DNA from: Limnomonas spitsbergensis
Lineage: Eukaryota > Chlorophyta > Chlorophyceae > Chlamydomonadales
DNA length: 64,000 nt
Assembly (NCBI GenBank): GCA_037349105.1
Contig: JAYJMM010000103.1
Location: forward strand, 1,612,001 to 1,676,000
Direction: 5' to 3'
A program made the position numbers and the translations under genes. Positions 8,331 to 64,000 of this stretch are shown piece by piece (the stretch's first letter is position 1; each line of letters opens with the position of its first letter). The notes under the pieces are model-generated. The model saw only the letters and a program-made list of their open reading frames with translations. It did no database searches and was not told the origin of the DNA.

Positions 8331-10118
8331 CTAGCTGGCCCCTTCTGGGCCCCTGCCAGAGCTGCTTGAGGAGTTTCCGCCGGCCCTGAAGCCGCTGAAG
8401 TTGAGGCTGCCCGCCAGTGTCGCAGCCAACGACGAGCCCAACCCCTGGCCCTGCGGCTGCTGGCGACCCCCTGAGGAGGCAGAGGCCAGCGATGGCGATG
8501 CGGCCGCAGCCGCCCGCGGGGCAGCGGCGCCGTGCGAGCCGCTGCTGCCCGCTGCGCCTTTGCTAGCAATGCGGGCCAGCTCCTGAGGCGTCAGCTTGAG
8601 CAGACGACTGATGACCTGTCAGGAGGATCCAGATTTAGAATAGCGCAGGGTGTATAATAACACACCGGATTCAGACGAGTAGACGATTTGGCCGGGCAGG
8701 GCAGTTGGTTTCCTGGGATGCCGGCTCCGGCGTCCATTCCTAGATTCCTGTCATGTTCTGTTGCCTGGACAAGGCCACAAGGGGGTCTTGACCTCGGCCT
8801 CGATGCAAATTTGCAGCCTACCGCGCTTCTGAACGTCGCGGACCCCATGCTATTTGTGTGTGCTATACTAAGTATGTTAGGAGAATCCAATTTGTAAATA
8901 TAGCGCATAGGTGTGGACTTGTTCCCACCAGTTTCCTGTCATGTTCTGTTGCCTGGGCAAGGCCACAAGGGGCAAGGGGTCTTAACCTTGTTCTTGACGC
9001 AAGTCTTTGCATGTTTTTCCTGTACAAGTACCCCATGCTATTTGCGTACACATATGCCATGCTGTTTAAGTTCACATATCCCCTGCTTTTACTGAATACC
9101 GATCCCATGTTTTAGGGGGTACACATGGGCATGGGGCACACAAGCTTCACATGACACATTTTGAGGTGCATAAGGTGCATGGGGCACATGGGGTGCAGGG
9201 GTGCATGGGGCACATGAGGTGCATGGGGGACATGAGGTGCATGAGGTGCATGGAGCACGTGGGGTGCATGAGGTGCATGGGGCACATGAGGTGCGTGGGG
9301 CACATGGGGTGCATGGGGCTCATGGGGTGCATGCGGTGCATGCGGCACATAAGGTGCATGAGGTGCATGAGGCACATGAGGTGCATGAGGTGTATAGGTC
9401 ACATGAGGTGCATGGGGCACATGGGGTGCATGGGGCACATGGGGTGAATGAGGTCACATGAGGTGCATGGGGCACATGGGGTGCATGGGGCACATGGGGT
9501 GCATGAGGTGCATGGGGCACATGGGGTGCATGAGGTGCATGGGGCACATGGGGTGCATGAAGTGCATGGGGCACATGGGTTGCATGAGTTGCATGGGGCA
9601 CATGAGTTGCATGGGGCACATGTGTTGCATGAGGTGCATGGGGCACATGAGGTGCATGGGGCACATGGGGTGCGTGAGGTGCATGGGGTACATGGGGTTG
9701 CATGAGGTGCATGGGGCACATGAGTTGCATGGGGAACATGTGTTGCAAGAGGTGCAAGGGGCACATGGGGTGCATGGGGCACATGGGGTGCATGAGGTGA
9801 ATGGGGCACATGGGTTGCATGAGGTGCATGGGGCACATGAGTTGCAGGGGCACATGTGTTGCAAGAGGTGCATGGGGCACATGGGGTGCATGAGGTGCAT
9901 GGGGTGCATGGGTTTCAAGAGGTGCATGGGGCACATGGGGTGCATCTGGCGCCGTTCATGCAGGTCACATGCATTGCTTGAGAACCTAAGTCATGGAATC
10001 CCAGCCCTTAACCCACCTGGAAGATGTGACTTGTGCGGGAAATCGTCCCTGTCTCAAACGCGCTGACCAGCACGCCCCGCAGGTACACGAGGTCCGCATC
10101 GCTCAGCTGCGCTAGAGC
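8331..10118 (-). other. golgin exons 31-32: GRIP domain and C-terminus
   Basis: Exon 10118-10017 encodes [20 protein letters not shown] and on to HIFQ. Exon 8615-8331 continues [20 protein letters not shown], then a Ser/Gly/Ala-rich tail and TAG at 8333-8331. The pattern YLR-x-VL...[10 protein letters not shown] matches GRIP domains (golgin-245 has EYLRKVLFEYM...VITTVLKF), including the Tyr known to be essential for Arl1 binding. The intron between them holds the 9.1-9.95 kb minisatellite. Confidence 0.85.
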
Positions 10119-13100
10119 CTGGGAAAATATGCAGAGAGGAGAATTGCAAAAATATGCAGAGGCAAGCAGCAGTGTGAGTGTGTGGGCGGGGGGGGGGGAG
10201 TGGGGCGAAGGGGATGTCGGTCGGAACGACGCCATTGGTGAAGCGTATATTTCCGTTTCAAGGGATTCAGGCAAAGGCTGTTTAGGTCCAGGGTCTCGCC
10301 TGAATCAACCTTCAGCTGGGTTCAGGGTATTGTTGCTCAGGAAGGTACCTCCTCCCTCCCCGCCCCTCCCGCCCCTCTCTCTCACCCGTTGCTTAACCAC
10401 CGCCTCCATGACAGTAGTATCGCTCACATGGCGCATCTCCCCTCTCTCCTATCTCGCCTCCCCCTCGCCCCTCTCCCCTGTTGCTTGGCCACCCTATCCT
10501 TTAGAGCGCTGCTGGTCCCATTCAGCAGCTCCCCTCTCCCCCATCAGTATCCCCCCTTCCCCCCCCCCCCCTCCCCCTCCCTCCCTCCCCCTCCCTCCCT
10601 CCCCCTCCCCTTCCCCCCCTCCCCCCCCTCCCTCCCTCCTTTAAGAATCCCCCCTCCCCCTCCCTCCCTTCCCCTCCCTCCCCCTCCCCCTCCCCCCCTC
10701 CCCCTCCCCCCCCCCCCCCTCCCCCCCTCCCTCCCTCCTTTCAGAATCCCCCCTCCCCCTCCCCCCTCCCCCTCCCCCTCCCCCCTCCCCCCTCCCCCTC
10801 CCCCTCCCCCTCACCCTTTGCTTAGCCACTTCCTCCTTGAGAGCAGCATCGCTCTGGTCGCGCAGCAAGTGAGTCCTCTCACTTTCCTCAAAGGCCTCCC
10901 GGTATTGTGCAACCTGGAGGATAAGGATGCGCGGAGTTGAGGTCGTTGAGAGGATATGTATTTCACGCTGTCCTCCAACGTTGACAGGAGATGTCTTCCT
11001 TTTTGTCCTCCAACATTGACAGGAGATGTCTTCCTTTTTGTCCTCCAACGTTGACAGGAGATGCAAATTTTTATTGTCCTCAAACGCCTACTGGTTCTGC
11101 GCAACCAGGAGGGCGACTGAACTTTGTTGATAGGAGGTGCGTTCTTTCAGAATCCCCAACCACCTCCTGATTTTGCGCCTCCTGGTGGTGTGTGTGTGTG
11201 TGTGTGTGTGTGCTGAGGGGAGTAGGTTCAAGGAGGACAGGAGGGAGGTAGACGTTTTGGGGGGAGGAGATGTGTTGCTCCCCTCCCCTTCCCCCCTCTC
11301 CCCCCCCCCCTTCCCCTTCCCCCCTCCCCCCTCTCCCTCTCCCTTCCCCCCTCCCCCTCTCCCTTCCCCCCTGTCCCTTCCCCCTCCACCACCCCCCTCC
11401 CCCTTCCCCCCTCCCCCCTCTCCTCTCCCCTCCCACTCCCCCCCCCTTCTCCCCTCCCACTCCCCCCCCCTTCCCCTTTCCTCGCCAAGCCTGCCCACCT
11501 GCTTCTGCAGCTCCTGCACCTGCGCTGCCTGTGCGCCCCCTGCCGCATCATACCCGACCAGGTTGCTCTGCGAGGAGGCGCCCGAAGCGGCCCCACCCAC
11601 GCGGCCCATCGAGGAGGTCGGGGAGGGCGGCTGCTGCAGCAGGCGCGGCTGGAGTTGGTAAGCAGAGGAGAGAGAGGAGGCGGAGGCGCGGCCCGCTTGC
11701 TGCTGCTGCTGTCGAGCGATCGCCTGCAGACGCTCCACTTTGGCTTCCGCCTCCTCGAGGAGTACGCGGCTGCGATCCCGCAGCGCTCCCATCTCCTCCT
11801 CAACACGAAGGCACCTGCGCAGAGAGGTGGGGGGGAGGCATGGTGGGAGGGAGGGAGGGAGGGAGGGAGGCATGGTGGGAGGGGGGGAGGGAGGCATGGT
11901 GGGAGGGAGGGAGGGAGGGAGGGAGGGAGAAGGACATGGCTTCAGCCTCCTCGAGGAGCACACGGCAGCGATGCTGCAGCGCTCCCAACTGCTCTTCAAC
12001 GCGAAGGCACCTGCGCAGAGAGAGGGAGAACTGTGAGTTATGTGCGTGTGTGTTGGAGGGGGGGGGGGGCGGAAGTGCCAACTTGTGGTGCTATGCCTTC
12101 CCATGGATGCTTACAAGGGGAATATGGGTATGTGGAGAGGGAGTGGAGCAATCCAGGGTCCCCGCTGATGATGTTCACACTTTTCAGGATTGGTACAACG
12201 TTGGCGGGGACGACAGCATGCAGAGCACCCAATGGCAAGCATGGCAAACCATGACATGCCCAGCGGGGACGAGGGCATGCCATGTACGGCAAGCCACGGC
12301 AACCAATGGTATGCATGGCCGCACCACACCACTCCTCCCATGCCCAGGGGGGATGACAGCATGCATGGCAAGTCTCGGCATGCATGGCCGCACCCCAGGA
12401 CTCCTCCCATGCCCAGGGGGGGACAACAGCATGCATGGCCGCACCACACCACTCCTCCCATGCCCAAGGAGGACAACAGCATGCATGGCCGCACCACACC
12501 ACTCCTTCCATGCCCAGGGGAGGACAACAGCATGCATGGCCGCACCTCACCACTCCTTCCATGCCCAAGGAGGACAACAGCATGCATGGCCGCACCACAC
12601 CACACCTCCCATGCCCAGGGGAGGACAACAGCATGCATGGCCGCACCACACCACACCTCCTATGCCCAAGGAGGACAATAGCATGCATGGCCGCACCACA
12701 CCACACCTCCAATGCCCAAGGAGGACAACAGCATGCATGGCCGCACCACACCACTCCTTCCATGCCCAGGGGAGGACAACAGCATGCATGGCCGCACCTC
12801 ACCACTCCTTCCATGCCCAAGGAGGACAACAGCATGCATGGCCGCACCACACCACACCTCCTATGCCCAGGGGAGGAAAACAGCATGCATGGCCGCACCA
12901 CACCACACCTCCTATGCCCAAGGAGGACAACAGCATGCATGGCCGCACCACACCACACCTCCCATGCCCAGGGGAGGACAACAGCATGCATGGCAAGCCA
13001 TAGCAGGCACAGATACCCATGGCATGCATGGCATGCATGGTGGGAACAAACACATGCACGCATGATTGCATAGCTGCACTGCACCTCTCCTCCCATGCGG

Positions 13101-16100
13101 CGGACTCCCGCGTCGCGCCTTGCAGCTTCTCATCAGCTTCCCTCAGCAGCCTTTCTGTCTCCTCAACCTCCTCACGCTGCGTCCGCTCCCAACTTGTTCG
13201 AGCGGCCGAGAGCGCCTGGCGCAACGAGGACTCGGCGGAAGACCCCGCCTGACGCTCCTCTTCGAGGCGACACTCGAGCTGTGAGGCCTAGGCATGGAGG
13301 GCGGGGCTGGGTTGTAATGAAGTGACTAGTAAATTAATGAGAAGCTGCCGTGTTTGCTTGGGGACCCCGATTTCTGGTTATATTTGTAAAGGGGGCAGGG
13401 GCAGGCTCATGAAAAAAAAAGGCAGAACCGATCCCTGAAGGGAATCTACCCGTACCGGCATGCCATGTGTGTTCATATTCTCGAGACCCTAGGGTCTTTG
13501 AAGTGCCAAAAGGGTGTCTGTAAAATAAACAAAGTACAGATGCGGCCCACCTTGAGGAGCAGCTCTCCGACCAGCCGCTCCGAGTCCCTGCATTGCCCCT
13601 CCAGCCGCTCGATCTCCTCGTTGGCCACGGCCCTCGCAGCATCCGCCTCGAAACGCACCGACACCACCGCCTCCTCAGCAGCAGCGGCCCCGCCATCATC
13701 CGAGCCCGCACCTGAGGCGCGGCCACCGCGGCTGCCGCCGCCGCCGCGGCTGTTGGCGCGGGAGGCGGCGCCCTGCAGCGGCGGTGGCGGCGGCAGCGCC
13801 GCCGCCGCCGCCACTGCCCTCTCCACCTGTTCCACCAGCCTGCGCACTGCTATTGGCCACTGCTCCCGAGGGCCCGTCGGCAAACTGTCAAGGTCGCCCA
13901 GCGCCTGCGGGTCGCCACTGAGGGGTGCTGAGGTTGAGGTGCCCACCCCGGACACCCCGCCCCAGCCCTGGTGCGCCTTGATGCCGGTGCGCGGTGCACC
14001 TGCACCCACACTGCCTCGCCTGCGCAGCTGCTCCAGGGTGCTGCTCAGACTCTCGTTATCGTCCTCGACCTGAGAGGCATCGTACGAAACAGTGTTTACC
14101 TTATCGTGACTCAGCTACAAGTCAGATACACTCCGGGCTTTGGCCGGAGAGGCCCCATTTGTGGCCGGCTATGCTGCTTTGGCCACCAGTCGTAGGCCGT
14201 TCCAGGTTTGGTCCCAATAGAGCAATTCTTGGCCTGCCAAAGGTGGACTTGTGGTTGGAAAAAGTAACGCTGGCACAGACCGAATCAAGGAGGATGATCA
14301 GGACCCCATGTAAAGACATAGAAGTAACTGCCACACCACATCCAACCGCCGATCACAACTTAGCACAACAATCCGTAATGCGTTACTAACAACAACTGCC
14401 GCCGCCACACACATGGAGTTCACCCTGAGGTGTGGATTCAGGGTTTAGCCACCCGTCCGGCCTTAAAACCAGGTAGGCTGCCTTCATCATTAGGTGGGGG
14501 GGGGGCATGAAAGATAAAAAACAATGAGGTTTGGATCCACTCCCTCTTGGTGCTTAACCGGTCAGTCGGCTAGTCAATACCGAGTCATGCTGAAAATTAA
14601 TAAAGGACACAAGCATGCGCTCTCCTCATATCGGTTACAAGTCTCAGGCTGGTAGCGCAAGCAAAAGGGCATCTTCCCCAAGACCTGTCAGCCAAAGGCA
14701 GGGCAGGACCTCCCCCGAAAGACGGAGGGGGGGGAGGTCCCAAAGCAAGCGGCCAAATTTACCTAAATTAATTAGCACAAGTGCACCCCAGCCTTCCACT
14801 CCAAATCCCACCAGATGCAACCGATTACCAAATTCAATAGCATGGTTGCGTTCCGTGTCGCTTCTGCCCCGCACCCCTGAGCCTCCGAATTCACCCTGTC
14901 TCTTCCCCTCCAGTCCTCCACCCCAAACTCTCAACCCCAAATCCCACCTGCTGCAGCCGGGCCTCTAGGTTCGACAGCATAGTCGAGTATCGCGTCGCCT
15001 CAGCCACCGCACCGTCTCGCTGGATCTCCGCAGCTGCCAGCTTCTGCCTGGCTGCCGATACGTCTGCCACCTGGCCCTCCAGCTCCGAGACCCGCGATTT
15101 CAGGGACGGGATCTCCTCTGCGGCTTGCTTCAGGCCGGGGACCTGCATGGTTGGGTTCAGGGTCACGGTTTAAAATGAAGGGGGGGGCGGGGGTCGAAGT
15201 TGAGGGTCCAGGGCGCAAAGCTATTGATTGTAGGCGTCAGCTAACGCAGCGAGCACCTGCCTGCTTGTCCGCACATCGCATCAAATCCTGTCACATCTCA
15301 TCACGTAACATCACATCAGATCTCATATCATCACCTCAGGTCGTGTTACACCAGATCAGATCAGATCACACCAGATCAGATCAGATCAAACCAGATCAGA
15401 TCAGATCAGATTGCATGTGATCACTTCACTCATGCGTTGGTAGCTTAACAGCAAGCATACAACGAAGGGTGGCCGACTCCGCATGCAATCCGTTCACAAG
15501 ATTGACAAGGATAAGCCCCACCCCGTTTTTGAAAGCAAGGAGCACCGCACCACCCCCGCCTTTTGAACCCTTTTTGAAAATCTCAACCTGGAACCCCTTT
15601 TTACTGCGGTGCTGCAGCAGGAACGGCTGATGCCAGCCCTCGCCTCCCCCCATTTGATGCCCCAAAACACCACAGCACTGATTATAAACCCCTTGCATGC
15701 CCGCGTGCATCCTGCTGTGGTCCCTGCATTTTCCGTTGCAAAAATAGTGCACTCTCTTCGATGCAACGGAATGTTCAATGTCGCACCCCATCATGTCATG
15801 TGGTAAGAAAAGGGTTCAGGGTCTTGGGGGTTCAGTGGGTCGTTCAGTAGGTCTTACGTCTGCCTCTTGTGGAGGTTATACAGAAATAAACAAACGATAC
15901 ACCCCGAGGCGTGGATTAAGGAAGCCACCCGTTACGCCGAAGCACTAGGTGAGCTACCAATTGTTACATGGAGGTTCAGCAGGTCTTAGGTCTGTCACAG
16001 GTCACCCAACCCCCACACACCGTGTCTCGAATGCGCTTCAGCTCCAGCTCTGCAACTGCCAGGCCCTCCCGCATGCCTGCCAGCTCCTTGAGCTTAACCT

Positions 16101-19100
16101 CCGCCGTGTCCAGCTTCTTCGTAGCTACTGCCAGCTGGGCGCTGGCGTCCTGCAGGCCTGCCACCTTTGCCTGAGGTGTTGGGTTTAGGGTGAGGGTTTA
16201 GAGTTGAGGATGTAGGGTTGAGGGTGAGGATGTAGGGTTGAGGGTAAGGGTGTAGCTTGAGGGTGCAGGGTTGAGTGTGAGGGATTGGGGTGAGGCTTTA
16301 GGTGAGGGTGTAGGGTAGAGTGTGAGGGTGTAAAGTTGAGGGTGAGGGTGTAGGGTTGAGGGTGAGGATGTAGGGTTGAGGGTGAAGGTGTAGGTTGGGG
16401 GTGCAGGGTGAGTGTGAGGGATTGGGGTGAGGCTTTAGGTGAGGGTGTAGGGTAGAGTGTGAGGGTGTAAAGTTGAGGGTGAGGGTGTAGGGTTGAGGGT
16501 GAGGATGTAGGGTTGAGGGTGAAGGTGTAGGTTGGGGGTGCAGGGTGAGTGTGAGGGATTGGGGTGAGTGTTGAGGGTGGGAGTGTAGGGTTGAGTGTGA
16601 GGATGTAGGGTTGAGGGTGAGGGTGTAGGTTGGGGGTGCAGGGTGAGTGTGAGGGATTGGGGTGAGGCTTTAGGTGAGGGTGTAGGGTAGAGTGTGAGGG
16701 TGTAAAGTTGAGGGTGAGGGTGTAGGGTTGAGGGTGAGGATGTAGGGTTGAGGGTGAAGGTGTAGGTTGGGGGTGCAGGGTGAGTGTGAGGGATTGGGGT
16801 GAGTGTTGAGGGTGGGAGTGTAGGGTTGAGGGTGAGGATGTAGGGTTGAGGGTGAAGGTGTAGGTTGGGGGTGCAGGGTGAGTGTGAGGGATTGGGGTGA
16901 GGCTTTAGGTGAGGGTGTAGGGTAGAGTGTGAGGGTGTAAAGTTGAGGGTGAGGGTGTAGGGTTGAGGGTGAGGATGTAGGGTTGAGGGTGAAGGTGTAG
17001 GTTGGGGTGCAGGGTGAGTGTGAGGGATTGGGGTGAGTGTTGAGGGTGGGAGTGTAGGGTTGAGTGTGAGGATGTAGGGTTGAGGGTGAGGGTTGAGGGT
17101 TGAGGGTGAGGATGTAGGGTTGCGGGTGAGGGTGTAGGGTTGAGGGTGTAGGTTGAGGGTGTATGGTTGGGTGTGAGGGTGTAGGGTTGAGGGTGGGCCT
17201 GTAGGGTTGAGGGTGAGGGTGAAGGGTTGAGGGTGAGGGTGTAGGGTTAAGGGCGAGGGTTTAGGTTAATGGTGTAGGGTTTATGTTGAGGGTGTAGGGT
17301 TGAGGGCCAGGGTGTAAGGTTTAGCGTGCAGATGTATGGTTGAGGGTGTAGGGTATAGGGTTGAGGGTGTAGGGTATAGGGTTGATGGTGTAGGGTATAG
17401 GGTTGAGGGTGTAGGGTATAGGGTTGAGGGTGTAGGGTATAGGGTGAGGACGTAGGGTTGAGGGTGAGGACGTAGGGTGAAGGGTTGTGGGTGTAGGGTT
17501 GAGGGTGAGGGTGCATGGTTGAGGGTGAGGGTGCAGGGTTGAGGGTGAGGGTGCAGGGTTGAGGGTGAGGGTGCATGGTTGAGGGTGATGGTGTAGGGTT
17601 GAGGGTGAGGGTGCAGGGTTGAGGGTGATGGTGTAGGTTTGAGGGTGAGGGTGCATGGTTGAGGGTGAGGGTGCAGGGTTGAGGGTGAGGGTGTAGGTTT
17701 GAGGGTGAAGGTTGAGCTTGTTGGGTTAAAGGCCCAAGGTTTAGTGTTTTGGGAATAGTGCAGAGCGGGCGGAAATGTAAGGGCCTACATGCATGGCTAG
17801 CAAGAAAAACTGTTATTGAATGATGGGCTGGTATGCAGGGTTTAGGGAAGCATGCAGGGCAACGAGAGGACGAATAACAACACAAGTAATCAGACGCGCT
17901 GCTGCGCAGCACGGAAAATGACAGGGGGGTTAAACCAAGCAGAAGGTTTATGCATGGGGGGTTACACAAGGGGGCTACGCAAAACAGGGGGTTTATGCAT
18001 GGGGGGTTACACAAGCGGGCTACACCAAACCGGGGGTTTATGTAGGGGGGGGGGGGGTATACAGGCAAGCCACACCAAACAGGGGGTTTATGCATGGGGG
18101 GGGGGGGGGGGGGGTCACAGGGGGGCTACACCAAACAGGGGGTTAACACGAAATGCATCAACGTAACACGCTTCAGGACCTGCAGGGTGCAGCCCAGACT
18201 ATCGCAACCAATAAGCGTGTCCAAGGCATTTGATGAGATCTGTAGCTCAGGCAGCCTCCGTCAGGATTTCAGATCGAGGGGAAGGGATAATGGCGAGGGA
18301 GTCATGAGGGTGTGCAGCGGGAGTGTGCATTCGGAGGGCGAGTGTTCGATTTTTCTTGTGAAATTTTGTAAGGTTGCGATGGAAGGTGGCATAATGAATG
18401 TCCACCCGTGGTGAGGTGAGGGGTGCCCATACTTGCAGTCACATCTCATGCCCAGTCACACTTATAAACCACACACACACAAGTCACACATCACCTAAGT
18501 CACACTTCCAGCAGACACATCAGATCACTCCCAGTGCCCAGACAACCCACCCATGCCCACCTGTAGTGCCTTGTTGGCATGTTGTAGTGCCTTCTGTTTC
18601 CCAAGCACATGCAGTGCCTTATTGTACAAATCCACCTGAAGTGCTTACTTGTACCCACGCACTGGTAGTGCCTTGTTGGCCTGTTGTAGTGCCTTGTTGG
18701 CCTACTGTACTGCCTTGTTGTGCCCTACCACCTGCAGTGCCTTGTTAGCCTGTTGTACTGCCTTATTGTGCTCACCCACCTGCAGTGCCTTGTTGGCCTG
18801 CTTTACTGCCTTGTTGTGCTCACCCACCTGCGGTGCCTTGTTGGCCTGCTGTACTGCCTTGTTGTGCTCACCCACCCGCAGTGCCTTGTTGGCCTGCTGT
18901 ACTGCCTTGTTGTGCTCACCCACCTGTAGTGCCTTGTTGGCCTGCTTGCTTCCCTTGTCTGACGCCTCGGTGGAAGCCAAGCGCTGCGTGACTGCGGCCA
19001 ACTGGGCAGAAAGGTCGTCCTTCTCCGCTGCCAGGCGCTTGTTTATCTTTTGGAGCCTGAGCAGAACGAAGGTGAGGCAACAGGCTTTGGAACAAAAGGC

Positions 19101-37018: not shown

Positions 37019-37080
<62 letters not shown>

Positions 37081-47879: not shown

Positions 47880-48084
47880 GCGTTAGACGTCTTACGCTGT
47901 CCCCTTACCCAACTCACACGTAACCTTATAATACTTAGAATCTAACGCTGTCCCCTTACCACAGTCACATGTATTCGGTATTCACTCTTCAAAATGATTC
48001 CTAAGTAAATATTATTCTACAGAGATTCACATGCATGGCAGTTTTTGAATTCCTTAATTCCCTGAACCTTGTAGCTTCTTTTTG

Positions 48085-48195
48085 CTGTCGTTGCGGTTTC
48101 GTTTCGGTTTTTTTGTGCTGGTTTCCTCCCGGTTCGCTCTGCCTGGCCATTTAGAAAAAGGCTGGTTGAGTCACCTTTGTAGCAACAACAACGTT
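48085..48195. repeat. dispersed repeat D, copy 2
   Basis: GGTTTCGTTTCGG, CCTCCCGGTTCGCTCTGCCT and AAAGGCTGGTTGAG match 24875-24985. Confidence 0.55.
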
Positions 48196-48645
48196 CAACA
48201 AGCAGTTTGTCAAGGTTTGTCAGGTTTTTCTCTCCCGCTTTGTTTCCTCCAGGGGTTACCTTATCTCTCCTGGGTCAGGTGCTTCGCTGGACTCTCACAC
48301 ATATTTTGCATCTTGTCTGTGGTTGTGTCTTAGAATGTTGGTTGCTTACCCAGGTGGTCACTGTTTTTTCGCTCACTGTCCCGAGGGGGGGGCAAAAATA
48401 AATGTCAAACACCCCATCATAAAAAAATGTGAAACGACTTCTGGCTACCCCCCCCCCCCCCCCGCCTCCGGAACCTAGTAAAACCTTGATTTCTCAGTCA
48501 AAAAACATAATTGGAGAAAGGGAGCGGGGTCAATTTCAATCAGCTCGTCAGTGCGCTTCTTATGGTGTCGATAAATGTAGCTAGTTCACAAATGTTAAGC
48601 GGTGTAACAAAAGAATACACCATTGCTCTTGCTACCACCTGCCAG

Positions 48646-49516: not shown

Positions 49517-49989
49517 TGCTTAATTCATAGCAACTACCAATGCAGCTACACCGTGTGAGTCCATAATGAGTGTACGCACAACAGTGCATGTGGTTCCAGA
49601 GCCATGACACCCCCCCATACCCAAATTGCATGCCAAGAGGGGTCTGGTATTCTGTGTGGAATTTTTTATGATGCATATCTGTAGCAAATGGCAGTGAGAA
49701 TGCAACGGTGTAGCTCTCGTCTCAATCTGATGTTTAAAAAAAACGGAAAGTTCAAAAAATGCCGTTTTTCTTCTACCCCCCTCCCTCCCCCCCCCACTTC
49801 GACCTTCCATATATCCCAGCCCCATGGGCCAAAAACAATTTTAAGACCAGATATGGAAAGCTCTCGTCAAGCTCTACTACTTTCAATGATGGGGTTTATT
49901 CAGTTGTTTTTGCCCCCCCCTCGCAGTCCTCGTTTATTTGAGTGCTCATACTGGTTTGCGGGCACATGTAAAGTGAGGTTTATAAAGCG

Positions 49990-50093
49990 GGGCATCACAT
50001 TTGATGCATGGGACTAGTGCCCGTAAACCGGTACAAGCACTAAATACGCTAGGACAGCGAGCGAAAACCAGTCTCATGCATCAAATGTGATGA
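49990..50093. repeat. 23-bp inverted repeat (hairpin)
   Basis: CATCACATTTGATGCATGGG (about 49993) and its reverse complement, starting AGTCTCATGCATCAAATG (about 50070), form arms of about 23 bp with one mismatch around a loop of about 55 bp. It lies just 3' of the Pol X stop codon on the gene strand, so it could be a small MITE or a structure in the 3' flank. Confidence 0.6.
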
Positions 50094-50180
50094 TCGGCTA
50101 GACACAACAAGCACAAATTTCACAAATGGACAGCCTCAAGGGCAGTACAATCGACCATGAAGCCCATGAGCACCAGGAGG

Positions 50181-56100: not shown

Positions 56101-59100
56101 ACGCGCCATTCAATATCCGCCAGCCAGGCACGTCCGAGAACCTCTGCGACAGGGACACAGGATACGGAATACGATAATAAGTTACGACGCGATACGATAC
56201 GACACGGGACTTTCGCCCGATACGGGATTCAATAACGTGGATTTCCAATCAAAGGGTGGATTTCCAGCCGGTGCACGGTAGTGGACCGTACCGATACAAT
56301 ACAATACAATACGGGATGTTTTGGCCGAAACGGCCCGTATCCTGTCCCTGCCCTCCAAGGTAGCCTGGACCTTGGCGGGAGAGAGAAGGATGTCCTAGTC
56401 ACTGCCACATCTTGGAAAGGATTTAGGGTTTAGAGCCGCCAGCCAGGGACGCCTGAGGACCTCTCCAAGGCAGCCTGGACCTCCGGGTCAATGGGGAGAG
56501 AGACGGTGCAGGAAAGTCATAATGGCGCTCCTGGGCAGGTGGGAGCAGGACGCCAGGGTCACTGCCATATCTTGGAAAGGATTTAGGGTTTAGAGCTGCC
56601 AGCCAGGGACGCCTGAGGACCTCTCCAAGGCAGCATGGACCTCCAGGTGTGAACGGTGCAGATAAGTCATAAAGGCAGGTGGGAGCGGGACTCCATGGTC
56701 GCAGCCACATCTTGGTGGTGGGTAAAAAGGGTTTAGGGTTTAGGGTATATGGTACAGGTTAAGGATTTAGGGTATATGGTCTAGAGCCACCAGCCAAGGA
56801 TGCCCGAGGCCCTGTCTAATGTAGCCTCGACCTCCTGGCGGGAGGAACAGACTCAATTAAGTCAGCGATGCCTCTAAACAGTGGCTGTGGACGCCTGACT
56901 CAAAAGCTGACAGCCAGGGATGCCTGACGCCCGCTCCGCGACGGCCTGATCCTCTTGGTGGATGGGAGTAGGACATCAGATTCAAGGCCACCCACCTATG
57001 CACCCACCTACCCACCCACCTACCCACCCAGAGTGGTGGACGGGAGTAGGACACCAGATTCAAGGCCACCCACCTATGCACCCACCTACCCACCCACCCA
57101 TCCACCCACCCATCCACCCACCCATCCGCCCACCCACCCAGAGTGGTGTGTATGTGGATGGGGAGAGTATAGCCGGATAGGGCAACAGGGTCAGTGCACA
57201 TCATGGGCAGTCCTTGTCCGCGCTCCTATCTTATATGGACCGGTCAAGGCTTGGTCTCGTCAGCCAGAAGTGGACGCCCGGCCACCTCCAAGGGTGTTCT
57301 GATGCACAACTGCCCACTAAACCCTTAACCCTAAACTAGGGTGTTCTGTTGCACAACTGCCCACTAAACCCTTAACCCTAAACTAGGGTGTTCTGTTGCA
57401 CAACTGCCCACTAAACCCTTAACCCTAAACTAGGGTGTTCTGTTGCACAACTGCCCACTAAACCCTTAACCCTAAACTAGGGTGTTCTGTTGCACAACTG
57501 CATACTACACCCGAAACACCAAACTAGGGTGTTCTGGTGCACAGCTGCCCACTAAACACTAAACCCTACACTAGGGTGCTCTGGTGCACAACTGCACACT
57601 AAACCCTACACTAGGGTGCTCTGGTGCACAACTGCACACTTAACCCTAAACTAGGGTGCTCTGGTGCACAGATGCCCACTAACCCCTTAACCCTAAAATT
57701 GGGCGTTCTGGTGCACAACTGCCCACTAAAACAAATACTTATGGCGGGACTTTATGTGAGGACTAAAGCAATGGCCCTACAGCGCAACATCAAACGACAC
57801 AAACAGTCTCATCCCAAGGCAAAATCTTTTAAAATCTTCTCCCCCCCCCAAAAAGCTCTTTAAATACCGTAGCTGTTTTTAAAGCTATTTTAAAAATAAG
57901 CCACCTTGACAAATAAACAATCCCCAACCATCCCAAGCACCCACCCGCTGCATCTCCTCCACCTCTGCAGCCGGGATCTCATCAGCGGTCAGGTCCTCCA
58001 CATGGCTGAGGCATGCCGAGACGCCCGGCAGCAGGCCCAAGCAACCGCTGGCAACCACACGCGCAACGTCAGGCCAGGTGCGGGCACCCTGCTGCCATAG
58101 CCTAGGGCACGGGCAGTATGAAGAACAGTTAGCAAGGTGGTTGTAAAAGTGGTTTGGAGGGTGATTTGAACGGCAGTTTGTAAATCACCATGCAAGGTCG
58201 TTTGAATTGCGCCTTTGGCCCTGTCCACCTGCAGGTTTCATCGAAAAAGGGTTTGCCCCAACTCTTTTTTACATGAGAGGCGGTGAGGCACTTCGGCAAG
58301 ACCCGTACGAGCGCCTCCACCCAGAGATACCCTGTCCCGGCACACGGGCCGCAGGTGAAACCCAAGTGGGGTCAAAACGTGCGGGGAAGATCCAAACAAA
58401 AAAGAACCGTGCAGGGACACCCGTGAGAGAAAGCCACACGAGAGTATATAAGTCTCACCGAACAGCTTCAGCCTCAGCTTGGTAGCTGGTCAGAAGCTGT
58501 TTTGTAAGGCCTACAGAGTAGCCCGAGAACCAGGAGCTGCAGGGAAATGCCCGCCGACGGCATGTGAAAACCCAGCCCACCTGTCCGCGAGGGCAGGCCC
58601 GATGCCCGGAAGCTTCTGGAACACGCGCCGCGTGTTGGCGCCCGCCGTGGCCGCCCGCACGGCACCGCCGCTGCTACACACTGCTCGGTCGGCGGCGAAG
58701 TCCCGCAGGCGGGCGCAGCTGGCTGTTAGCGGCGCCAGCCGACTAGAAGCCGATGGGAAGCTGACTGGAATATGATCGGAAGCTATCTGGGAGCTGCCAT
58801 TCCCTGGACCAGGGGCATGTAGAGAAGTTGTCTGGAAGCTAGATACCGGGGCCGGAAGACGAGCCTGCACAAGGGCTGCATCGCCCCCCCCGCACCTGCC
58901 GCCTCTCCCGTCCCAGCTCCCGTCGGCGCTGCTGCCACCAACACCCTCGCCAGCGTCCCCGGCACTGCCTCCGACGTGCCTTCCGTCGTCTCTGCGCCCG
59001 CAAGCCGCACCCGCATCACCAAAAGGCAGCTCCCCCCTGAGCCTCTTGGCACTCGGCGATGGCTCCAGAGTTAACAGAGGCAGCGAGCGGCGGCGGCCGG

Positions 59101-62100
59101 GATCTGAGGCATGTACTGCTAATGTGTGTACTGTCAGTGGATCAGAAGGTGCCACCCAATGCCCAGCGTTTGCACACCCCTCTGGGACCCCTGGTACTTC
59201 TTGTCCCTGTTGTTGCTCTTGCTGTTGCCTCTGTAGTTGCTCCTGCTGTTGCCTCTGTTGTTGCTCTTGCTGTTGCCGCTGTTGTTGCTCCTGCCGCTGT
59301 CGCTCCTGCACCTGCTGTTGCTCCAGCTTTTTCTGTTCCCGTCGCTGCAGCTGCTGCTGCTGGTGCAGCGAGGCCACCAGCTCTTGGATGACCTTGGCCG
59401 CGCTCGGCCCCACAAAGGGAAGGTGCTGCTCCAGGAAGGCGGCCGAGTGGGAGGGGGTCAGCTCAAAAACGCAGGCCCGTACCGCAGCTGCCGGACGGCT
59501 GTACTGCAGATCCTGCGGAAAGTAAAGGGCATGCCAAATTAAAAAAAGTACCGCAGCTGCCGGCTGGCTGTACTAAGGTAGGAGATTAGGGTTTAAAGGT
59601 TTGCGTTTCAGGTTCTAGATTCTAGTCATATATGGTGTGCCATGGAATAATGAATTTGATTTGACATCCCCCGGTTATGAATTTTCTTTTTCTTTTTATC
59701 GTCATTCAAAAAAAAATGGCACCTATGAACCACCTTTCTCCTGTCACTGGATCCCAGTACCTTCCCCCACCCCTCTCTACCCTCCCCCAGTACCTTCCCC
59801 CACCCCTCTCTACCCTCCCCCAGTACCTTCCCCCACCCCTCTCTACCCTCCCCCAGTACCTTCCCCCACCCCTCTCTACCCTCCCCGAGTACCTTCCCCC
59901 ACCCCTCTCTACCCTCCCCCAGTACCTTCCCCCACCCCTCTCTACCCTCCCCCAGTACCTTCCCCCACCCCTCTCTACCCTCCCCGAGTACCTTCCCCCA
60001 CCCTTCTCCACCCTCCCCCAGTACCTTCCCCCACCCCTCTCTACCCTCCCCCAGGACCTTCCCAGTACCTTCCCAGTACCTTCCCAGTACCTTCCCAGTA
60101 CCTTCCCAGTACCTTCCCAGTACCTTCTCCCCCCCCTCCCCACACCTCCCCCCCCTCACATGATGGTTACTGTCTCCGTCATCACCGTCCTTGCTGCTGA
60201 CGTAAATTGCGCGTTCAAACTTGGCCAGCTCGCCGAGAGCCCTGGCCACTGGCTCGTTGCGTCCCGTAGCTGCGTTGAAGCGGGCCTGCCGAGACAGTGG
60301 GGCAAACGTTTCTGGGGCTCAGGGTCCATCCTTCCGGGTTTATGGTGTACATATATATAAATGTATGTACACTATATATATATATAGAGTGTTCATACAT
60401 ATATACCGGTATATCGTTTATATGTATATTTTTATATATTTCTGCTGGCAGGAACCTGACCGCCTGCACAATTCAAATTATGAATTCCACCCACCGAAAC
60501 CCTGAACCCTCTAACGCAGTCGTTTAATGCACCTCACCATTCTCTTCTTCCTGGTGTGCAAATAAACCTTCACATTTCAAATTCAAAATTCAAAACCGAC
60601 ACTGCCCCCGGGCTAACGCACTTGTAGGATCAGCTCCCCCTGGAGCATGCCGTCGAATTCAGGACGCCACGACCCGAGCCACAAGCCATAACCCCCTCCC
60701 CCTTGTTGCTGCTGCTGTTGTTGCTGCTGCTGCTGCTGCTGCATCCCAGAGTTCGTGTTTCCTGGCCCGCCATGGGTGACAGCACCTGCTGCGGGTTTCG
60801 AAAGTGCGAAGTAACGAATCAGAAGTGCCAGACATCTATATCCATCAGCAGCAACACAGTGATGCCCTGATCAACACAAACAACACCTACACAAGCCTTG
60901 CAACCCGTAAGTCCCCATGCACCTCATCCCCTGCCTTCTCACGTTGTTTGCGCCGGGGAACCCCCTGCTTTGGGAGGGCGCCAAGCAGAGGCCCGCCTGT
61001 GGCCCTCCACCGCCCCTCATCACCATGCACCTCATCACCTGCCTTCCCATGCACCTCATCCCCATGCACCTCATCACCATGCACCTCATCCCCTGCCTTC
61101 CCACGCACCTCATCCCCATGCACCTCATCTCCTGCCTTCCCATGCACCTCATCCCCTGTCTTCTTATGCACCTCATCACCATGCACCTCAGTCCCTGCCT
61201 TCCCATGCACCTCATCACCATGCACCTCTTCCCCTGCCTTCCCATGCACCTCATCACCATGCACCTCATCCCTTGCCTTCCCATGCACCATTATAATCGC
61301 CATGCATCCCCATGCCCATCGTACGTCCCCTTCTTTCCCATGCACCCTTTTATACCCTATGCATCCCCATGCCCATCGTACGCCCACTTCTTTCCTATGC
61401 ATCCTTTTATACCCCATGCATCCCCATGCCCATCGTACGTCCCCTTCTTTCCCATGCACCCTTCTACACCCCATGCATCCCCATGAACCCACAAGTACCC
61501 ATGTGCCTCATGCCCTCTGCTCCCAGGTCTTCACCCCGAACCTAAGCAGGAACCTGCCTGCTCTAGTATCCTCTTGCTTATATGCGCCCCAAAGCTGCAT
61601 GGGGGTGCATGGGGGCATGGGAGCCATGGAAGCCATGTACCCTTTGCACCCAACGTGCCCCTGCACACCCCAGCTGCTCCCCTGCGCCCCTATGTCCTTA
61701 CTCCTACCTTCAAGCCCCTCCCTGACCGCAAAGGGCTGCCTCAGCAGGCACATGCACCGTGCATCCACATCACCATGCACCCCTATGTCCCAACTTTTAC
61801 CTGCAGACACCTCCCTGGACCCAGGACACCTTGTGCTGCGAGAGGGCAGCCCTGGCAGCACATGCACCCACGTCACCATGTCCCCACAGTTATCCGCAGG
61901 CACCTGCTCGTGCACAGAGGGGGCGGTATCAGCAGCACATGCACCTGTGCACCCACTTCACCATGCAACCCCCCCCTTACCTGCAGACACGTCCTTGCTC
62001 CCAGAGGCCGGCATCAGCAGCACATGCACCTGTGCACCCACTTCACCATGCATCCCCCCCCCTTACCTGCAGGCACGTCCTTGCACTCAGAATCAGCATC

Positions 62101-63820
62101 AGCAGCACATGCACCTGTGCACCCACTTCACCATGCACCCCCCCCCTTACCTGCAGACACGTCCTTGCTCCCAGAGGCCGGCATCATCAGCACATGCACC
62201 TGTGCACCCACTTCACCATGCCCTGCCCCCCTTACCTGCAGACACGTCCTTGCTCCCAGAAGCCGGCATCAGCAGCACATGCACCTGTGCACCCACTTCA
62301 CAATGCACCCCTCCCCCCTTACCTGCAGACACGTCCTTGCTCCCAGAGGCCGGCATCAGCAGCACATGCACCTGTGCACCCACTTCACCATGCACCCCTC
62401 CCCCCCTTACCTGCAGGCACATCCTTGCTCCCAGAGGCCGGCATCAGCAGCACATGCACCTGTGCACCCACTTCACCATGCACCCCTCCACCCTTACCTG
62501 CAGGCACATCCTTGCTCCCAGAAGCCGGCATCAGCAGCACATGCACCTTTGCACCCACTTCACCATGCACCCCTCCACCCTTACCTGCAGACATGTCCTT
62601 GCTCCCAGAGGCCGGCATCAGCAGCACATGCACCTGTGCACCCACTTCACCATGCACCCCTCCACCCTTACCTGCAGACACGTCCTTGCTCCCAGAAGCC
62701 GGCATCAGCAGCACATGCACCTGTGCACCCACTTCACCATGCACCCCTCCACCCTTACCTGCAGACACGTCCTTGCTCCCAGAAGCTGGCATCAGCAGCA
62801 CATGCACCTGTGCACCCACTTCACAATGCACCCCTCCCCCCTTACCTGCAGACACGTCCTTCCTCCCAGAGGCCGGCATCAGCAGCACATGCACCTGTGC
62901 ACCCACTTCACCATACCCCGCCCCCCTTACCTGCAGACATGTCCTTGCTCCCAGAGGCCGGCATCAGCAGCACATGCACCTGTGCACCCACTTCACCATG
63001 CCCCGCCCCCCTTACCTGCAGACACGTCCTTGCTCCCAGAGGCCGGCATCAGCAGCACATGCACCTGTGCACCCACTTCACAATGCACCCCCCCCCCCCC
63101 TTACCTGCAGACACGTCCTTGCTCCCAGAGGCCGGCATCAGCAGCACATGCACCTGTGTACCCACTTCACCATGCACCCCTCCCCCCCTTACCTGCAGGC
63201 ACATCCTTGCTCCCAGAGGCCGGCATCAGCAGCACATGCACCTGTGCACCCACTTCGCCATGTACCCCTCCCCCCCTTACCTGCAGGCACGTCCTTGCTC
63301 CCAGAGGCCGGCATCAGCAGCACATGCACCTGTGTACCCACTTCACCATGCACCCCTCCCCACCTTACCTGCAGGCACATCCTTGCTCCCAGAGGCCGGC
63401 ATCAGCAGCACATGCACCTGTGCACCCACTTCGCCATGTACCCCTCCCCCCCTTACCTGCAGGCACGTCCTTGCTCCCAGAAGCCGGCATCAGCAACACA
63501 TGCTGATCCACCGGCGCCAAGGCCTTGCCGTCACAGCAAGCTACCATCCACGACTCTGTGACCACACACACCACCCCTGCAGGAGCGGGACATGCGGCCA
63601 CGGCTGCCACCGCCGCGGCCATGGCGGTTGCGGCGCCGGTCCTAGCGATATTCCCTCTTGAACGCGCTTGCTGCCGCTGCTGCTGCTGCTGTTGCCGTGC
63701 CTGCTGCTGTTGCACCAGCTGAGCCAAGCCGAGGTCGGCAGCCAGACGTTTCTGGAGAGCCGCATCGCAGCCGTACTTGTCGCCGACGATAATAAAACGC
63801 AGGCTGCTGTCACTTAGTGC
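50181..63820 (-). CDS. family X DNA polymerase, Pol mu/TdT type (5' end beyond window)
   Basis: Exons (high to low): 63820-63457, 60788-60622, 60285-60160, 59512-58581, 58101-57945, 55679-55349, 53681-53585, 52289-52212, 51685-51570, 50269-50181. All phases match, giving 818 residues plus TGA from the first visible exon. Order: BRCT (VTESWMVACCDG), 8-kDa domain (LPFVGPSAAKVIQELV), a Gln-rich insert, second HhH (LPGIGPALADRLWQQGARTW), palm (LVGGSRRGGTAGHDVDLLV with two Asp; RRLDIILVP with the third), thumb (ALVGWTGSRQFLRFLKD) and C-terminus (FSLLGLPFIRPEDR). In this family GHDVD with His before the first Asp and GW in GWTGS mark Pol mu/TdT. Pol beta/lambda have GD(M/V)D and YFTGS. The usual 5'-dRP-lyase Lys position holds Val, as expected for a lyase-deficient Pol mu-like enzyme. 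The likely role is end processing and gap filling in non-homologous end joining. A further 5' exon with the start codon lies outside. Confidence 0.85.
50285..50450. repeat. CATTTAAATGCCAGATTAAA repeat
   Basis: Six diverged units of about 26 bp (CCCATTTAAATGCCAGATTA), just upstream of the last Pol X exon in its intron. Confidence 0.85.
51070..51185 (-). repeat. dispersed repeat E, inverted copy
   Basis: Read on the minus strand: GAAAGCTATGCCCCGTGG, GGCGTGAGAG and CAGCCTGGGCCGGAGCC. It matches 53712-53815 (plus) and diverged copies at 54285-54355 and 54548-54630. Confidence 0.55.
51405..51569 (-). repeat. copies of the Pol X thumb-exon donor edge
   Basis: Downstream of TTTTA|GTAAGTGTGGAAGG, further copies read ATCTTTGACTCAAGCAAGTG and TGTGGAAGGAATCTTTGACT. 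A larger copy at about 51415-51465 reads FLKDSATRRGLHSTS, matching FLKDSATRRGLKFTS of the exon. Confidence 0.75.
51840..52185. repeat. 21-bp minisatellite
   Basis: About 16 units of ATTATCCAGACAGCTCCTGG (A/G and T/C variants), in the Pol X intron between 52212 and 51685. Confidence 0.95.
52212..53681 (-). other. Pol X exons 53681-53585 and 52289-52212: loop region and third catalytic Asp
   Basis: Exon 53681-53585 (TTCAG|GC to GACAG|GTAGGT) reads RMLPSSRSGGW... to EKRSVD and was chosen because it alone satisfies phase 1 in and phase 2 out. Exon 52289-52212 continues RFDHIFGLYVTLGG and RVRRLDIILVPQ. The pair parallels the TdT stretch VDALDHFQKCFLIFKL followed by a (V/I)RVDL block. Confidence 0.75.
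52290..53215 (-). repeat. G-rich minisatellite seeded by the acceptor edge of Pol X exon 52289
   Basis: Upstream of the real acceptor TTTGGCCAG|GTTCGACCACA, the array repeats its relatives: GGCCAGGTTCGACCACATCT at about 52380-52400, then TAACCAAGTTCGGACCCATC and TAACCAAGTCCGGCCCCATC in at least six larger G-rich units (about 112-120 bp each at 52740-53120). Divergence from the exon edge increases with distance. Confidence 0.75.
53712..54630. repeat. block of duplicated segments (repeat E and others)
   Basis: Repeat E copies lie at 53712-53815, 54285-54355 and 54548-54630 (GGCGTGAGGGTTAAGGAAAC, AGTGCGGCATGGGC). A separate pair is at about 54015-54150 and about 54725-54850 (GGAAGCAATGACACACC and GTGTCATGGCAGGGAGCCT). 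No coding potential was recognised. Confidence 0.6.
54385..54475. mobile_element. SINE-like dispersed repeat B, copy 3 (opposite orientation)
   Basis: GGTAGCTCACCTAGTGCTAC, GGCCGAACGGGTGGCTTCC, TTAATCCACGCCTCAGGGCG and a TATTTATGTATTATT tail. It is the reverse complement of the copies at 15885 and 42365. Confidence 0.6.
54870..55165. mobile_element. SINE-like dispersed repeat A, copy 4, with internal fourfold duplication
   Basis: GTGACTCAGCTACATGTCAA at the left, CCAGGTTTTGTCCCAATTGG near the right. The 42-bp block GGCTTGAGGCCCCATTTGTG plus GCCAGCTCTGTTGCTTT is repeated four times, whereas other family members have it once. Confidence 0.65.
55349..55679 (-). other. Pol X exon: palm with two catalytic Asp
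   Basis: CCGTCAG|GAAGTCCAGG starts EVQAALEKSSGVPGWRLDLV, then GGSRRGGTAGHDVDLLVSHP. A Gly/Ser-rich insert of about 55 residues follows, and VCVLFKELVDSG ends it before CAG|GTGTGG (phase 1). The first bases of the exon and its acceptor are tandemly amplified upstream. Confidence 0.85.
55684..56960 (-). repeat. tandem copies of the acceptor edge of the Pol X palm exon
   Basis: Three further 120-bp units (to about 56100) are almost identical to the unit that includes the real exon start. Each has CCCGTCAG|GAGGTCCAGG and the codons for EVQAALEKSSGVPGWRL, then a non-coding part instead of the rest of the exon. Older copies lie at about 56432-56490, 56590-56650, 56780-56840 and 56900-56960, the last reading EDQAVAERASGIPGCQL. 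No copy has a usable donor. Confidence 0.85.
56980..57145. repeat. ACCCACCTACCCACCC repeats
   Basis: Short CCACCCACCTAC units inside a two-copy duplication of about 87 bp (GGACATCAGATTCAAGGCCA / GGACACCAGATTCAAGGCCA). Confidence 0.85.
57298..57725. repeat. about 50-bp repeat with telomere-like CCCTAAACTAGGG
   Basis: About nine units of GGTGTTCTGTTGCACAACTG plus CCCACTAAACCCTTAACCC. The first four are nearly identical, later ones drift. In the Pol X intron between 57945 and 55679. Confidence 0.95.
57945..58101 (-). other. Pol X exon: fingers subdomain
   Basis: CTAG|G completes Arg, then LWQQGARTWPDVARVV... and HVEDLTADEIPAAEVEEMQR. This parallels the LxxxGIRTLEDL...YFEDFxxRIPREEV pattern of Pol X. 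52 codons, donor CGG|GTGGGT. Confidence 0.8.
58581..59512 (-). other. Pol X exon: 8-kDa HhH, about 200-residue Gln/Ser/Gly insert, start of second HhH
   Basis: YSRPAAAVRACVFEL and LPFVGPSAAKVIQELV complete the 8-kDa domain. An Arg/Gln-rich run (QERQRQEQQQRQQQEQQQ type) and a Ser/Gly/Asp-rich stretch of roughly 200 residues follow, then VFQKLPGIGPALAD. In animal Pol X enzymes the two HhH motifs are only a few tens of residues apart. Donor GACAG|GTGGGC (phase 2). Confidence 0.75.
59750..60130. repeat. 33-bp and 11-bp minisatellites at the donor of Pol X exon 60285-60160
   Basis: About ten units of CCCAGTACCTTCCCCCACCC plus CTCTCTACCCTC, then six or seven units of CAGTACCTTCC. They begin within 30 bp of the donor CAT|GTGAGG. 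Confidence 0.95.
60160..60788 (-). other. Pol X exons 60788-60622 and 60285-60160: Gln-rich linker and start of the 8-kDa domain
   Basis: The first exon has a run of about 13 Gln, then GYGLWLGSWRPEFDG and GELILQ. The second reads NEPVARALGELAKFERAIYV, which fits the first helix of the 8-kDa domain. The junctions are phase 1 in, then phase 0 and phase 0. Donors CAA|GTGCGT and CAT|GTGAGG. Confidence 0.65.
60350..60445. repeat. AT dinucleotide-rich tract
   Basis: ATATATATA and TATATTTTTATAT runs in otherwise GC-rich DNA, within a Pol X intron. Confidence 0.85.
61020..61500. repeat. CACCATGCACCTCATC and about 57-bp repeats
   Basis: About 61020-61290 has 16-40-bp units of CCCATGCACCTCATCACCAT. 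About 61310-61480 has three units with CATGCCCATCGTACGTCCCC and TTCTTTCCCATGCACCC. Confidence 0.9.
61900..63456 (-). repeat. 84-88-bp minisatellite: 17 extra copies of the BRCT-exon 3' edge with its donor
   Basis: On the gene strand each unit has GTGCTGCTGATGCCGGCCTC, GGGAGCAAGGACGTG and CTGCAG|GTAAGG, identical or nearly so to the exon end at 63457. I count 18 donor-bearing units including the real one, at roughly 84-88-bp spacing. All 18 retain GCAGGTAAGG. Long plus-strand frames (up to 900 codons) across it are artefacts. Confidence 0.9.
63457..63820 (-). other. Pol X exon with BRCT domain and poly-Gln insert
   Basis: Residues 1-121 of the visible protein. SLRFIIVGDKYGCDAALQKR opens the BRCT fold. 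A Gln/Arg run (QQQQARQQQQQQRQQ) and poly-Ala interrupt it. GVVCVVTESWMVACCDGKAL gives the conserved BRCT Trp helix. Acceptor CCTCAG|GCA, donor CCTGCAG|GTAAGG (phase 1). Confidence 0.75.
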
Positions 63821-64000
63821 CTGAGGTGAGGGGGGTTCAAGGTGTAGGGTTGATGTTCAGGGTTTCTGGAGTGCTGCGCTGCAGCTTTATTTGCCCCTAA
63901 CAAGTATGAACCGCAGGCTGCCGTCACCTAGTGCCTGAGGTGAGGGGGGTTCAAGGTGTAGGGTTGATGTTCAGGGTTTCTGGAGTGCTGCGCTGCAGCT
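63821..64000 (-). repeat. copy of the BRCT-exon acceptor edge upstream
   Basis: About 63897-63945 repeats CCTCAG|GCACTAGGTGACGGC and reads ALGDGSLRFILV against ALSDSSLRFIIV in the exon. The flanking GGGGTTCAAGGTGTAGGGTT is also duplicated, and the array may continue past the right edge. Confidence 0.75.

What the first reader, a model, noticed from the sequence alone, without database searches (positions are those of the whole stretch)
8331..63960. Minisatellites built from exon edges and their splice sites across two genes
Many intron arrays here are not random satellites. They are tandem copies of the last or first bases of the adjoining exon plus its donor or acceptor. Seen at donors after 63457, 51570, 39658, 37126, 27395, 25097, 18924 and 10815, and at acceptors before 63820, 55679, 52289, 39818, 38459, 34256, 24389, 23111 and 11814. 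Copies range from exact to decayed with stops, and tend to diverge with distance from the exon. This suggests introns grow by repeated local duplication anchored on splice sites. Inference: it could be a continuing form of the AGGT tandem-duplication route proposed for intron gain.
Basis: partly seen in the sequence, partly recalled or inferred. Interest (0 to 1): 0.88.

Follow-up and report, generated by a model that had tools for sequence, protein, structure and literature searches.

The report
Tandemly copied splice junctions lengthen introns
In this green-alga genome, about a quarter of the splice junctions examined have been tandemly copied into the neighbouring intron, apparently because ordinary short duplications that happen to cross a junction do no harm, so introns grow and keep fossil copies of exon edges.

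Summary
It is not confined to the window: in dynein heavy chain genes at 11 loci on 9 contigs, with exons placed by protein homology, 23 of 94 junctions have such copies (both controls 0 of 94). Similarity fades to background about 75 nt into the exon. The units are mostly head-to-tail duplications, median 107 nt, with the splice site anywhere inside.

Junctions are copied no more often than random intron points (21/94 against 442/1560), so nothing shows anchoring on splice sites. The signature of AGGT-type intron birth appears in 0 and 1 of 93 introns, and introns at positions shared by paralogs carry copies too (21 of 34). So old introns grow.

The anatomy is that of amphioxus 'mirages' (PMC3087553). 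New are the host, a chlamydomonadalean green alga, and the frequency.

The parts
50181..63820 (-). Gene A, DNA polymerase X of the mu/TdT type (incomplete model: at least one exon between 55349 and 52289 not found, exon start before 60622 not fixed)
   Evidence: PDB best match human Pol mu E 3.3e-25
10815..44737 (-). Gene B, long coiled-coil protein, about 25 exons
63748..64000 (-). Acceptor array at 63820: 114-bp unit (73 exonic + 41 intronic nt), at least 13 copies, continues at least 1.3 kb beyond the window
61704..63502 (-). Donor array at 63457: 88-bp unit (46 exonic nt + donor GTAAGG + intron start), 17 well preserved (90-97%) and 3 decayed copies
59479..59574 (-). Acceptor 59512: one copy of 27 exonic nt, 35 nt upstream (missed by reader; exon-side evidence only)
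55629..56843 (-). Acceptor array at 55679: 120-bp unit with 51 nt of the palm exon; three near-perfect and five decayed copies
52273..52404 (-). Acceptor 52289 duplicated once (103-bp unit, 17 exonic nt)
51664..51790 (-). Acceptor 51685 duplicated once (93-bp unit, 22 exonic nt; missed by reader)
51413..51634 (-). Donor 51570 with two copies
39773..40397 (-). Acceptor 39818: two decayed copies, 417 and 530 nt upstream
38697..39663 (-). 31-bp array x31 abutting donor 39658, reaches only 5 nt into the exon (fails the criterion)
38416..38685 (-). Acceptor 38459 with three decayed copies
36925..37137 (-). Donor 37126: decayed junction-spanning copy beyond a GT microsatellite (left limit approximate)
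34208..34660 (-). Acceptor 34256 with two copies (unit 132)
26445..27462 (-). Donor array at 27395 (GC donor), 31-bp unit with 15 exonic nt; one longer copy of 68 exonic nt
24990..25112 (-). Donor 25097 duplicated once
24381..24487 (-). Acceptor 24389 duplicated once (9 exonic + 50 intronic nt)
23098..23316 (-). Acceptor 23111 with two copies
20406..20802 (-). Donor 20728 with three copies (missed by reader; reverse-complement control also reaches 31 here)
18554..18957 (-). Donor array at 18924: 48-bp (16-codon) unit, reading frame open through several units
14798..15012 (-). Donor 14948: decayed copy (missed by reader)
11745..12022 (-). Acceptor 11814: decayed copy of at least 70 exonic nt
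10885..11112 (-). Acceptor 10913: decayed copy (missed by reader; exon-side evidence only)
10374..10853 (-). Donor 10815 with two decayed copies (intron end not fixed; reverse-complement control also reaches 37 here)

Best explanation
Short tandem duplications (mostly about 30-200 bp, median 107) arise all along genes of this alga. When one happens to cross a splice junction the extra copy is harmless, because splicing still uses the site next to the intact exon (the first donor, the last acceptor) and everything beyond it is intron. Such duplications therefore survive like those inside introns, while duplications inside exons are mostly removed by selection. Some later expand into minisatellites by unequal exchange or slippage and may be homogenised; most of those in dynein genes stay at one to four extra copies and decay. 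The result is growth of existing introns and fossil copies of exon edges. Shown here: presence, tandem layout, frequency in the sample, lack of excess at junctions, occurrence in introns at shared positions. Inferred: which splice sites are used, the role of selection, and the mutational origin (fill-in and end joining of staggered breaks is a plausible source, by analogy only).
For: Junction-spanning copies at 20/59 window and 23/94 dynein junctions against 2/59 and 0/94 (reverse complement) and 0/59 and 0/94 (other introns) (p 2e-5 and 5e-8 against reverse complement). The gradient into the exon ends by 75 nt in dyneins: 21/94, 16/94, 9/94, 4/89, 2/85, 0/79, 0/73, 0/62; a similar trend in gene-finder models elsewhere, 6/42 falling to 0/30. 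The intronic part between junction and first copy is itself recopied behind it in 26 of 36 cases. Junction rate at or below random intron points; 4 junction-spanning arrays of 42 versus 3.6 expected. Copies in 21 of 34 introns at positions shared by paralogs. Dynein introns with copies are longer: 528 versus 334 nt, p 0.005. The exon as source: the copied edges at 55679, 51685 and 51570 lie in sequence that aligns with Pol mu, and the dynein edges in conserved AAA1 sequence. At 63820 the array is homogenised up to the junction: the last unit's 41 intronic nt are 97.6% like the copies, its 73 exonic nt only 74.8%, while the copies' exonic parts are 97.9% alike. Break-repair source: small tandem duplications form by fill-in of 3' overhangs and end joining in mammalian cells (PMC8355091, abstract and passages).
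Against: No RNA data: which copies are spliced is unknown. 10 of 36 testable cases lack a detectable recopied intron part. At the shared intron of nine dynein paralogs the copy matches its own exon best in 6 of 9 comparisons; in 3 another paralog's exon scores higher, so some duplications are old or sequence was exchanged. A looser criterion (12 exonic nt) gives 30/94 but also 2/94 in the reverse complement and 17/442 in introns of other genes. The gene-finder sample is small and not significant alone (6/42 versus 1/42, p 0.11), and its finder was trained on the window exons. The shared-versus-unique difference (21/34, 4/13) has p 0.10. In the window, exon-interior points also match further along their own exon in 37/200; I put this down to repetitive coiled-coil and Q-rich coding sequence, so exons there are not free of internal repeats.
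Confidence: 0.77

Rival explanations
1. Duplication is directed to splice sites (for example by transcription, R-loops or the splice motif itself), so junctions are hot spots.
For: Copies do cluster at exon edges when compared with exon interiors.
Against: Random intron points show copies as often or more often; arrays span junctions about as often as uniform placement predicts; the junction lies at varying places in the unit.
Confidence: 0.08
2. Continuing intron birth by tandem duplication of AGGT-bearing exon segments (Rogers model).
For: Copies of exon edges with GT or AG lie in introns; one 96-nt intron in a Q-rich gene on contig C100 fits at its 5' end.
Against: The upstream exon's end recurs at the intron's 3' end in 0 of 93 introns and the downstream exon's start at its 5' end in 1 of 93, while in dyneins copies lie within 160 nt of their own junction at 24 of 94; introns at shared positions carry copies (21/34).
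Confidence: 0.04
3. The copies are functional: tandem splice sites give protein variants or control splicing.
For: At 18924 the 48-bp unit keeps the frame open and several donors score about equally; AG is kept in 18 of 20 acceptor copies and GT in 9 of 16 donor copies whose dinucleotide could be mapped in dyneins.
Against: 27 of 39 units are not multiples of three, as expected by chance (units, counted); in dyneins the copies are partial, diverged exon edges (75-97% identity).
Confidence: 0.07
4. Exon edges were copied through an RNA or cDNA intermediate into introns.
For: Some copies show only exonic sequence.
Against: The junction-spanning copies carry intron sequence and 26 of 36 tested are tandem, which spliced RNA cannot give.
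Confidence: 0.02
5. Chance, low complexity, or wrong gene models.
For: Gene B is repetitive; splice sites were predicted; some gene B junctions pass only weakly (43234 score 34, 14948 score 40, 25097 score 44). In the L038 model the first intron leaves an in-frame stop and is probably misplaced.
Against: Controls near zero; the dynein sample uses conserved exons, and the spliced L042 protein matches Volvox over 317 residues without a gap at 93% identity.
Confidence: 0.02

Closest known systems
'Mirages' of amphioxus (Adh3, TnC, globins BflGb6 and BflGb9, PGBD5)
   Same: Tandem repeats spanning exon-intron boundaries, at donor and at acceptor, many but not all copies keeping GT/AG; homogenised copies with the boundary unit left out (PMC3087553 passages; PMC3902484 passage).
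   Different: Described there for single genes of a chordate; here in a green alga, at about a quarter of the sampled junctions, with tests of anchoring and of intron position.
[quoted passage not shown] ATP2A1; fission yeasts; potato RdRp)
   Same: Local tandem duplication involving exon sequence and splice motifs (PMC4974935 passages). The potato case duplicated the 3' side of an intron with the start of the next exon, as acceptor units do here.
   Different: There a new intron arises; here existing introns lengthen.
Long introns of core-Reinhardtinia algae
   Same: Same order of algae; introns conspicuously long, with the driving mechanism left open (PMC8226300 passages).
   Different: The passages seen do not describe junction duplications; whether this alga belongs to that clade was not tested.
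Small tandem duplications from fill-in and end joining at staggered breaks
   Same: Short head-to-tail duplications (PMC8355091, abstract and passages; the rice study of Vaughn and Bennetzen was seen only in its reference list).
   Different: Shown in mammalian cells; not tested here.

Membership tests
Mirage (amphioxus) | Tandem repeat whose unit spans an exon-intron boundary | tested here: met
   20/59 and 23/94 junctions; tandem layout in 26 of 36 testable
Mirage (amphioxus) | Occurs at both 5' and 3' boundaries | tested here: met
   donors and acceptors
Mirage (amphioxus) | Many but not all copies keep AG/GT | tested here: met
   dynein copies: AG in 18 of 20 acceptor copies, GT in 9 of 16 donor copies; 10 further copies could not be mapped
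Mirage (amphioxus) | Homogenised copies with the boundary copy excluded | tested here: inconclusive
   met at 63820 (exonic part 97.9% among copies, 74.8% to exon), not at 63457 (93.8% and 93.1%); other arrays not measured
Mirage (amphioxus) | Splicing undisturbed; copy-number polymorphism | not testable with these tools
   no transcripts, no second haplotype
AGGT tandem-duplication intron gain | Intron ends are copies of the opposite exon edges | tested here: not met
   0/93 and 1/93
AGGT tandem-duplication intron gain | Intron is new, absent in relatives | tested here: inconclusive
   only by paralogs: copies in 21/34 introns at shared positions, 4/13 at unique ones (p 0.10); no other species' DNA available
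Introners | Same element in many unrelated introns | tested here: not met
   for the junction units only, against one other intron each: 0/59 and 0/94

The most novel reading that the evidence does not exclude
Unanchored tandem duplication, including duplications that cross splice junctions, is the main engine of intron growth in Chlamydomonadales and explains their unusually long introns; copied exon edges, whose source sequence is known, can serve as dated fossils to measure intron growth per junction.
Probability: 0.35. Interest if true: 0.78.

Novelty: new member of a known kind. Interest (0 to 1): 0.6.

Why it matters
What drives the long introns of these algae is left open in the comparative study seen (PMC8226300). 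Exon-edge copies are duplications with a known source, so they show directly that introns grow by tandem duplication and how often. They also pose a clean test for splicing: the cell must pick the right one of several near-identical splice sites. A feature reported for a few amphioxus genes becomes common and countable.

Tried and rejected
A first exon-only 40-nt test missed 37126 and 24389; replaced by junction-spanning tests. A pattern search for tandem donor motifs gave arrays but no gain over the backward control (37+3 matches against 7+26) and was dropped; one of its loci, L008, held by luck another exon with copies on both sides (by eye only). C120:1,000,001-1,100,000 is 85% tandem repeat with one coding seed at the first threshold and gave no gene model. 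Homologs of the polymerase in the protein collection were distant (4 hits, best 28% identity, only the 7998 candidates sharing most words scored) and did not name the organism. A RuBisCO search to name it did not complete. Literature: nine searches found the amphioxus cases; two searches returned nothing. Three of them named algae (68, 71, 75) and listed no report of such junction repeats in algae; the library lacks most subscription papers.
Full report
WHAT WAS CLAIMED AND HOW IT WAS CHECKED. Both genes lie on the minus strand. Gene A (50181-63820) encodes a DNA polymerase X of the mu/TdT type: 59512-58581 joins 58101-57945 in frame, 52289-52212 joins 51685-51570 and 50269-50181, and these with 55679-55349 match human Pol mu and other X-family polymerases. 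Gene B (about 44737-10815) is a long coiled-coil protein. From frame, consensus and homology I fixed 30 donors and 29 acceptors; doubtful ones (acceptors 41540 and 29208, a missing exon of gene A, the donors of the exons at 23111 and 13287) were left out.

RESULT IN THE WINDOW. With a probe of 45 exonic plus 14-90 intronic nt and a required span of 8 nt on each side, 20 of 59 junctions have a copy in their own intron at score 30 or more; the reverse complement gives 2 of 59 and another intron 0 of 59. 30-nt exon windows match the adjoining intron in 14/54 at the edge and in 2/46 or fewer from 75 nt inward. The largest arrays are a 114-bp unit at acceptor 63820 that runs on for at least 1.3 kb outside the window, an 88-bp unit at donor 63457 (20 copies) and a 120-bp unit at acceptor 55679 (8 copies). 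At 55679, 51685 and 51570 the copied exon edge lies in sequence that aligns with Pol mu, so there the exon is the source; for the other gene A edges this was not shown.

BEYOND THE WINDOW. Dynein AAA1 domains (PF12774) matched 89 places, which I group by eye into 16 loci. I fetched 11 of the 16, on 9 contigs (C86, C75 twice, C109, C39, C123 twice, C22, C92, C34, C122), choosing strong and compact ones, and placed exons by a spliced protein-to-DNA alignment written for the purpose. The product of L042 matches Volvox carteri dynein at 93% over 317 residues with no gap; the first intron of L038 is probably misplaced, since its model keeps a stop. In 47 introns, 21 of 94 exon edges match their own intron (reverse complement 1/94, other intron 1/94), falling to 0/79 at 75 nt; the spanning test gives 23/94 against 0/94 and 0/94. 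Gene-finder models on C100 and beside the window (21 introns) gave 6/42 against 1/42 and 0/42; alone this is not significant (p 0.11), pooled with the other two samples the edge count is 41/190 against 3/190 (p 2e-10). By eye, an exon of about 47 nt on C89 has decayed copies of both edges (L008).

LAYOUT. Of 39 junctions with a nearest copy, the intronic stretch before the copy is repeated behind it in 26 of the 36 that could be tested; unit length median 107, range 30-457; exonic share of the unit 0.09-0.71 (the probe was capped at 75 exonic nt, so the upper end is limited). Where the layout is clear these are head-to-tail duplications whose ends are not at the splice site.

ANCHORING. A 30-nt piece next to a random intron point recurs further along the same intron in 317/1000 cases in the window, against 10/50 junctions; 508/1640 against 16/92 for 46 introns; 442/1560 against 21/94 in dyneins (p 0.24). 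Forty-two TRF arrays in 25 bounded window introns include 4 that span a junction, 3.6 being expected under uniform placement in a simple model. I see no sign that junctions are hot spots; they share in a high background of local duplication. These 25 introns are 41% tandem repeat.

INTRON GAIN OR GROWTH. In the AGGT model the intron's 3' end copies the upstream exon and its 5' end the downstream exon. This was seen in 0 of 93 and 1 of 93 introns. Introns at positions shared by two or more dynein paralogs carry exon-edge copies (12 exonic nt or more) in 21 of 34 cases, unique ones in 4 of 13 (p 0.10). The intron at one shared position is hit in six of nine paralogs, with the copy closest to its own exon in 6 of 9 comparisons. 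Dynein introns with copies are longer (528 versus 334 nt). I read this as growth of old introns.

HOMOGENISATION. At 63820, twelve copies are 97.5% alike over the whole unit. The last unit's 41 intronic nt are 97.6% like the copies, but its 73 exonic nt only 74.8%: likeness to the array stops at the splice junction. At 63457 the exon is as close to the copies (93.1%) as they are to each other (93.8%). I read the first as array turnover that selection keeps out of the coding sequence (inference).

ORGANISM. The L042 dynein matches Volvox, Astrephomene, Chlamydomonas sp. UWO 241 and Haematococcus (the last over 60% of the query) at 92-94%, all in or near Chlamydomonadales (and general knowledge), so the host is taken to be a chlamydomonadalean green alga. 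Two animal entries head that list by score, at 67% and 75% identity.

RELATION TO THE LITERATURE. Amphioxus 'mirages' are minisatellite-like tandem repeats of exon-intron boundaries, with units of 10-160 bp, at both boundaries, with AG/GT in many copies, and with splicing reported as undisturbed (PMC3087553, passages; PMC3902484, passage). The arrays here meet the anatomical parts of that description; homogenisation is uneven, and splicing and polymorphism could not be tested. The globin authors proposed mirages as a source of new introns; the data here point to growth of old ones. Core-Reinhardtinia algae have conspicuously long introns whose driving mechanism is left open (PMC8226300, passages); this mechanism is a candidate, untested in those species.

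LIMITS. No transcripts, no second strain, no annotated genome; under 0.4 Mb of 260 Mb was read; splice sites are predicted; no other genome's introns could be run through the same test, so how unusual the rate is stays unknown.

Noticed in passing
window 18554-18957 (-): The 48-bp donor array keeps the reading frame open over several units, each with a similar donor; alternative donors would add 16-residue coiled-coil repeats.
   Followed up: partly
window 50181-63820 (-): A polymerase X whose four hits in the protein collection are vertebrate Pol mu/TdT and one fungal protein, none from an alga (best 28%; the exon at 63820 looks like a BRCT domain by eye, but Pfam gave no hit for it).
   Followed up: partly
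L010 and window 63748-64000: Likeness to the 114-bp array stops at the splice junction: the intronic part of the last unit matches the array, the exonic part does not.
   Followed up: yes
L008 (C89:815745-818774), minus strand: An exon of about 47 nt with decayed copies of both its acceptor and donor edges in the flanking introns (by eye).
   Followed up: no
L013-L022 (C120:1,000,001-1,100,000): A 100-kb block that is 85% tandem repeat, perhaps a centromeric or satellite region.
   Followed up: no
window 16181-17712 and 21547-21911: Long arrays rich in telomere-like motifs (GGGTTTAG- and CCCTAAAC-like).
   Followed up: no
window 27395 (-): Apparent GC-AG intron; the GC donor is repeated in the array.
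   Followed up: no
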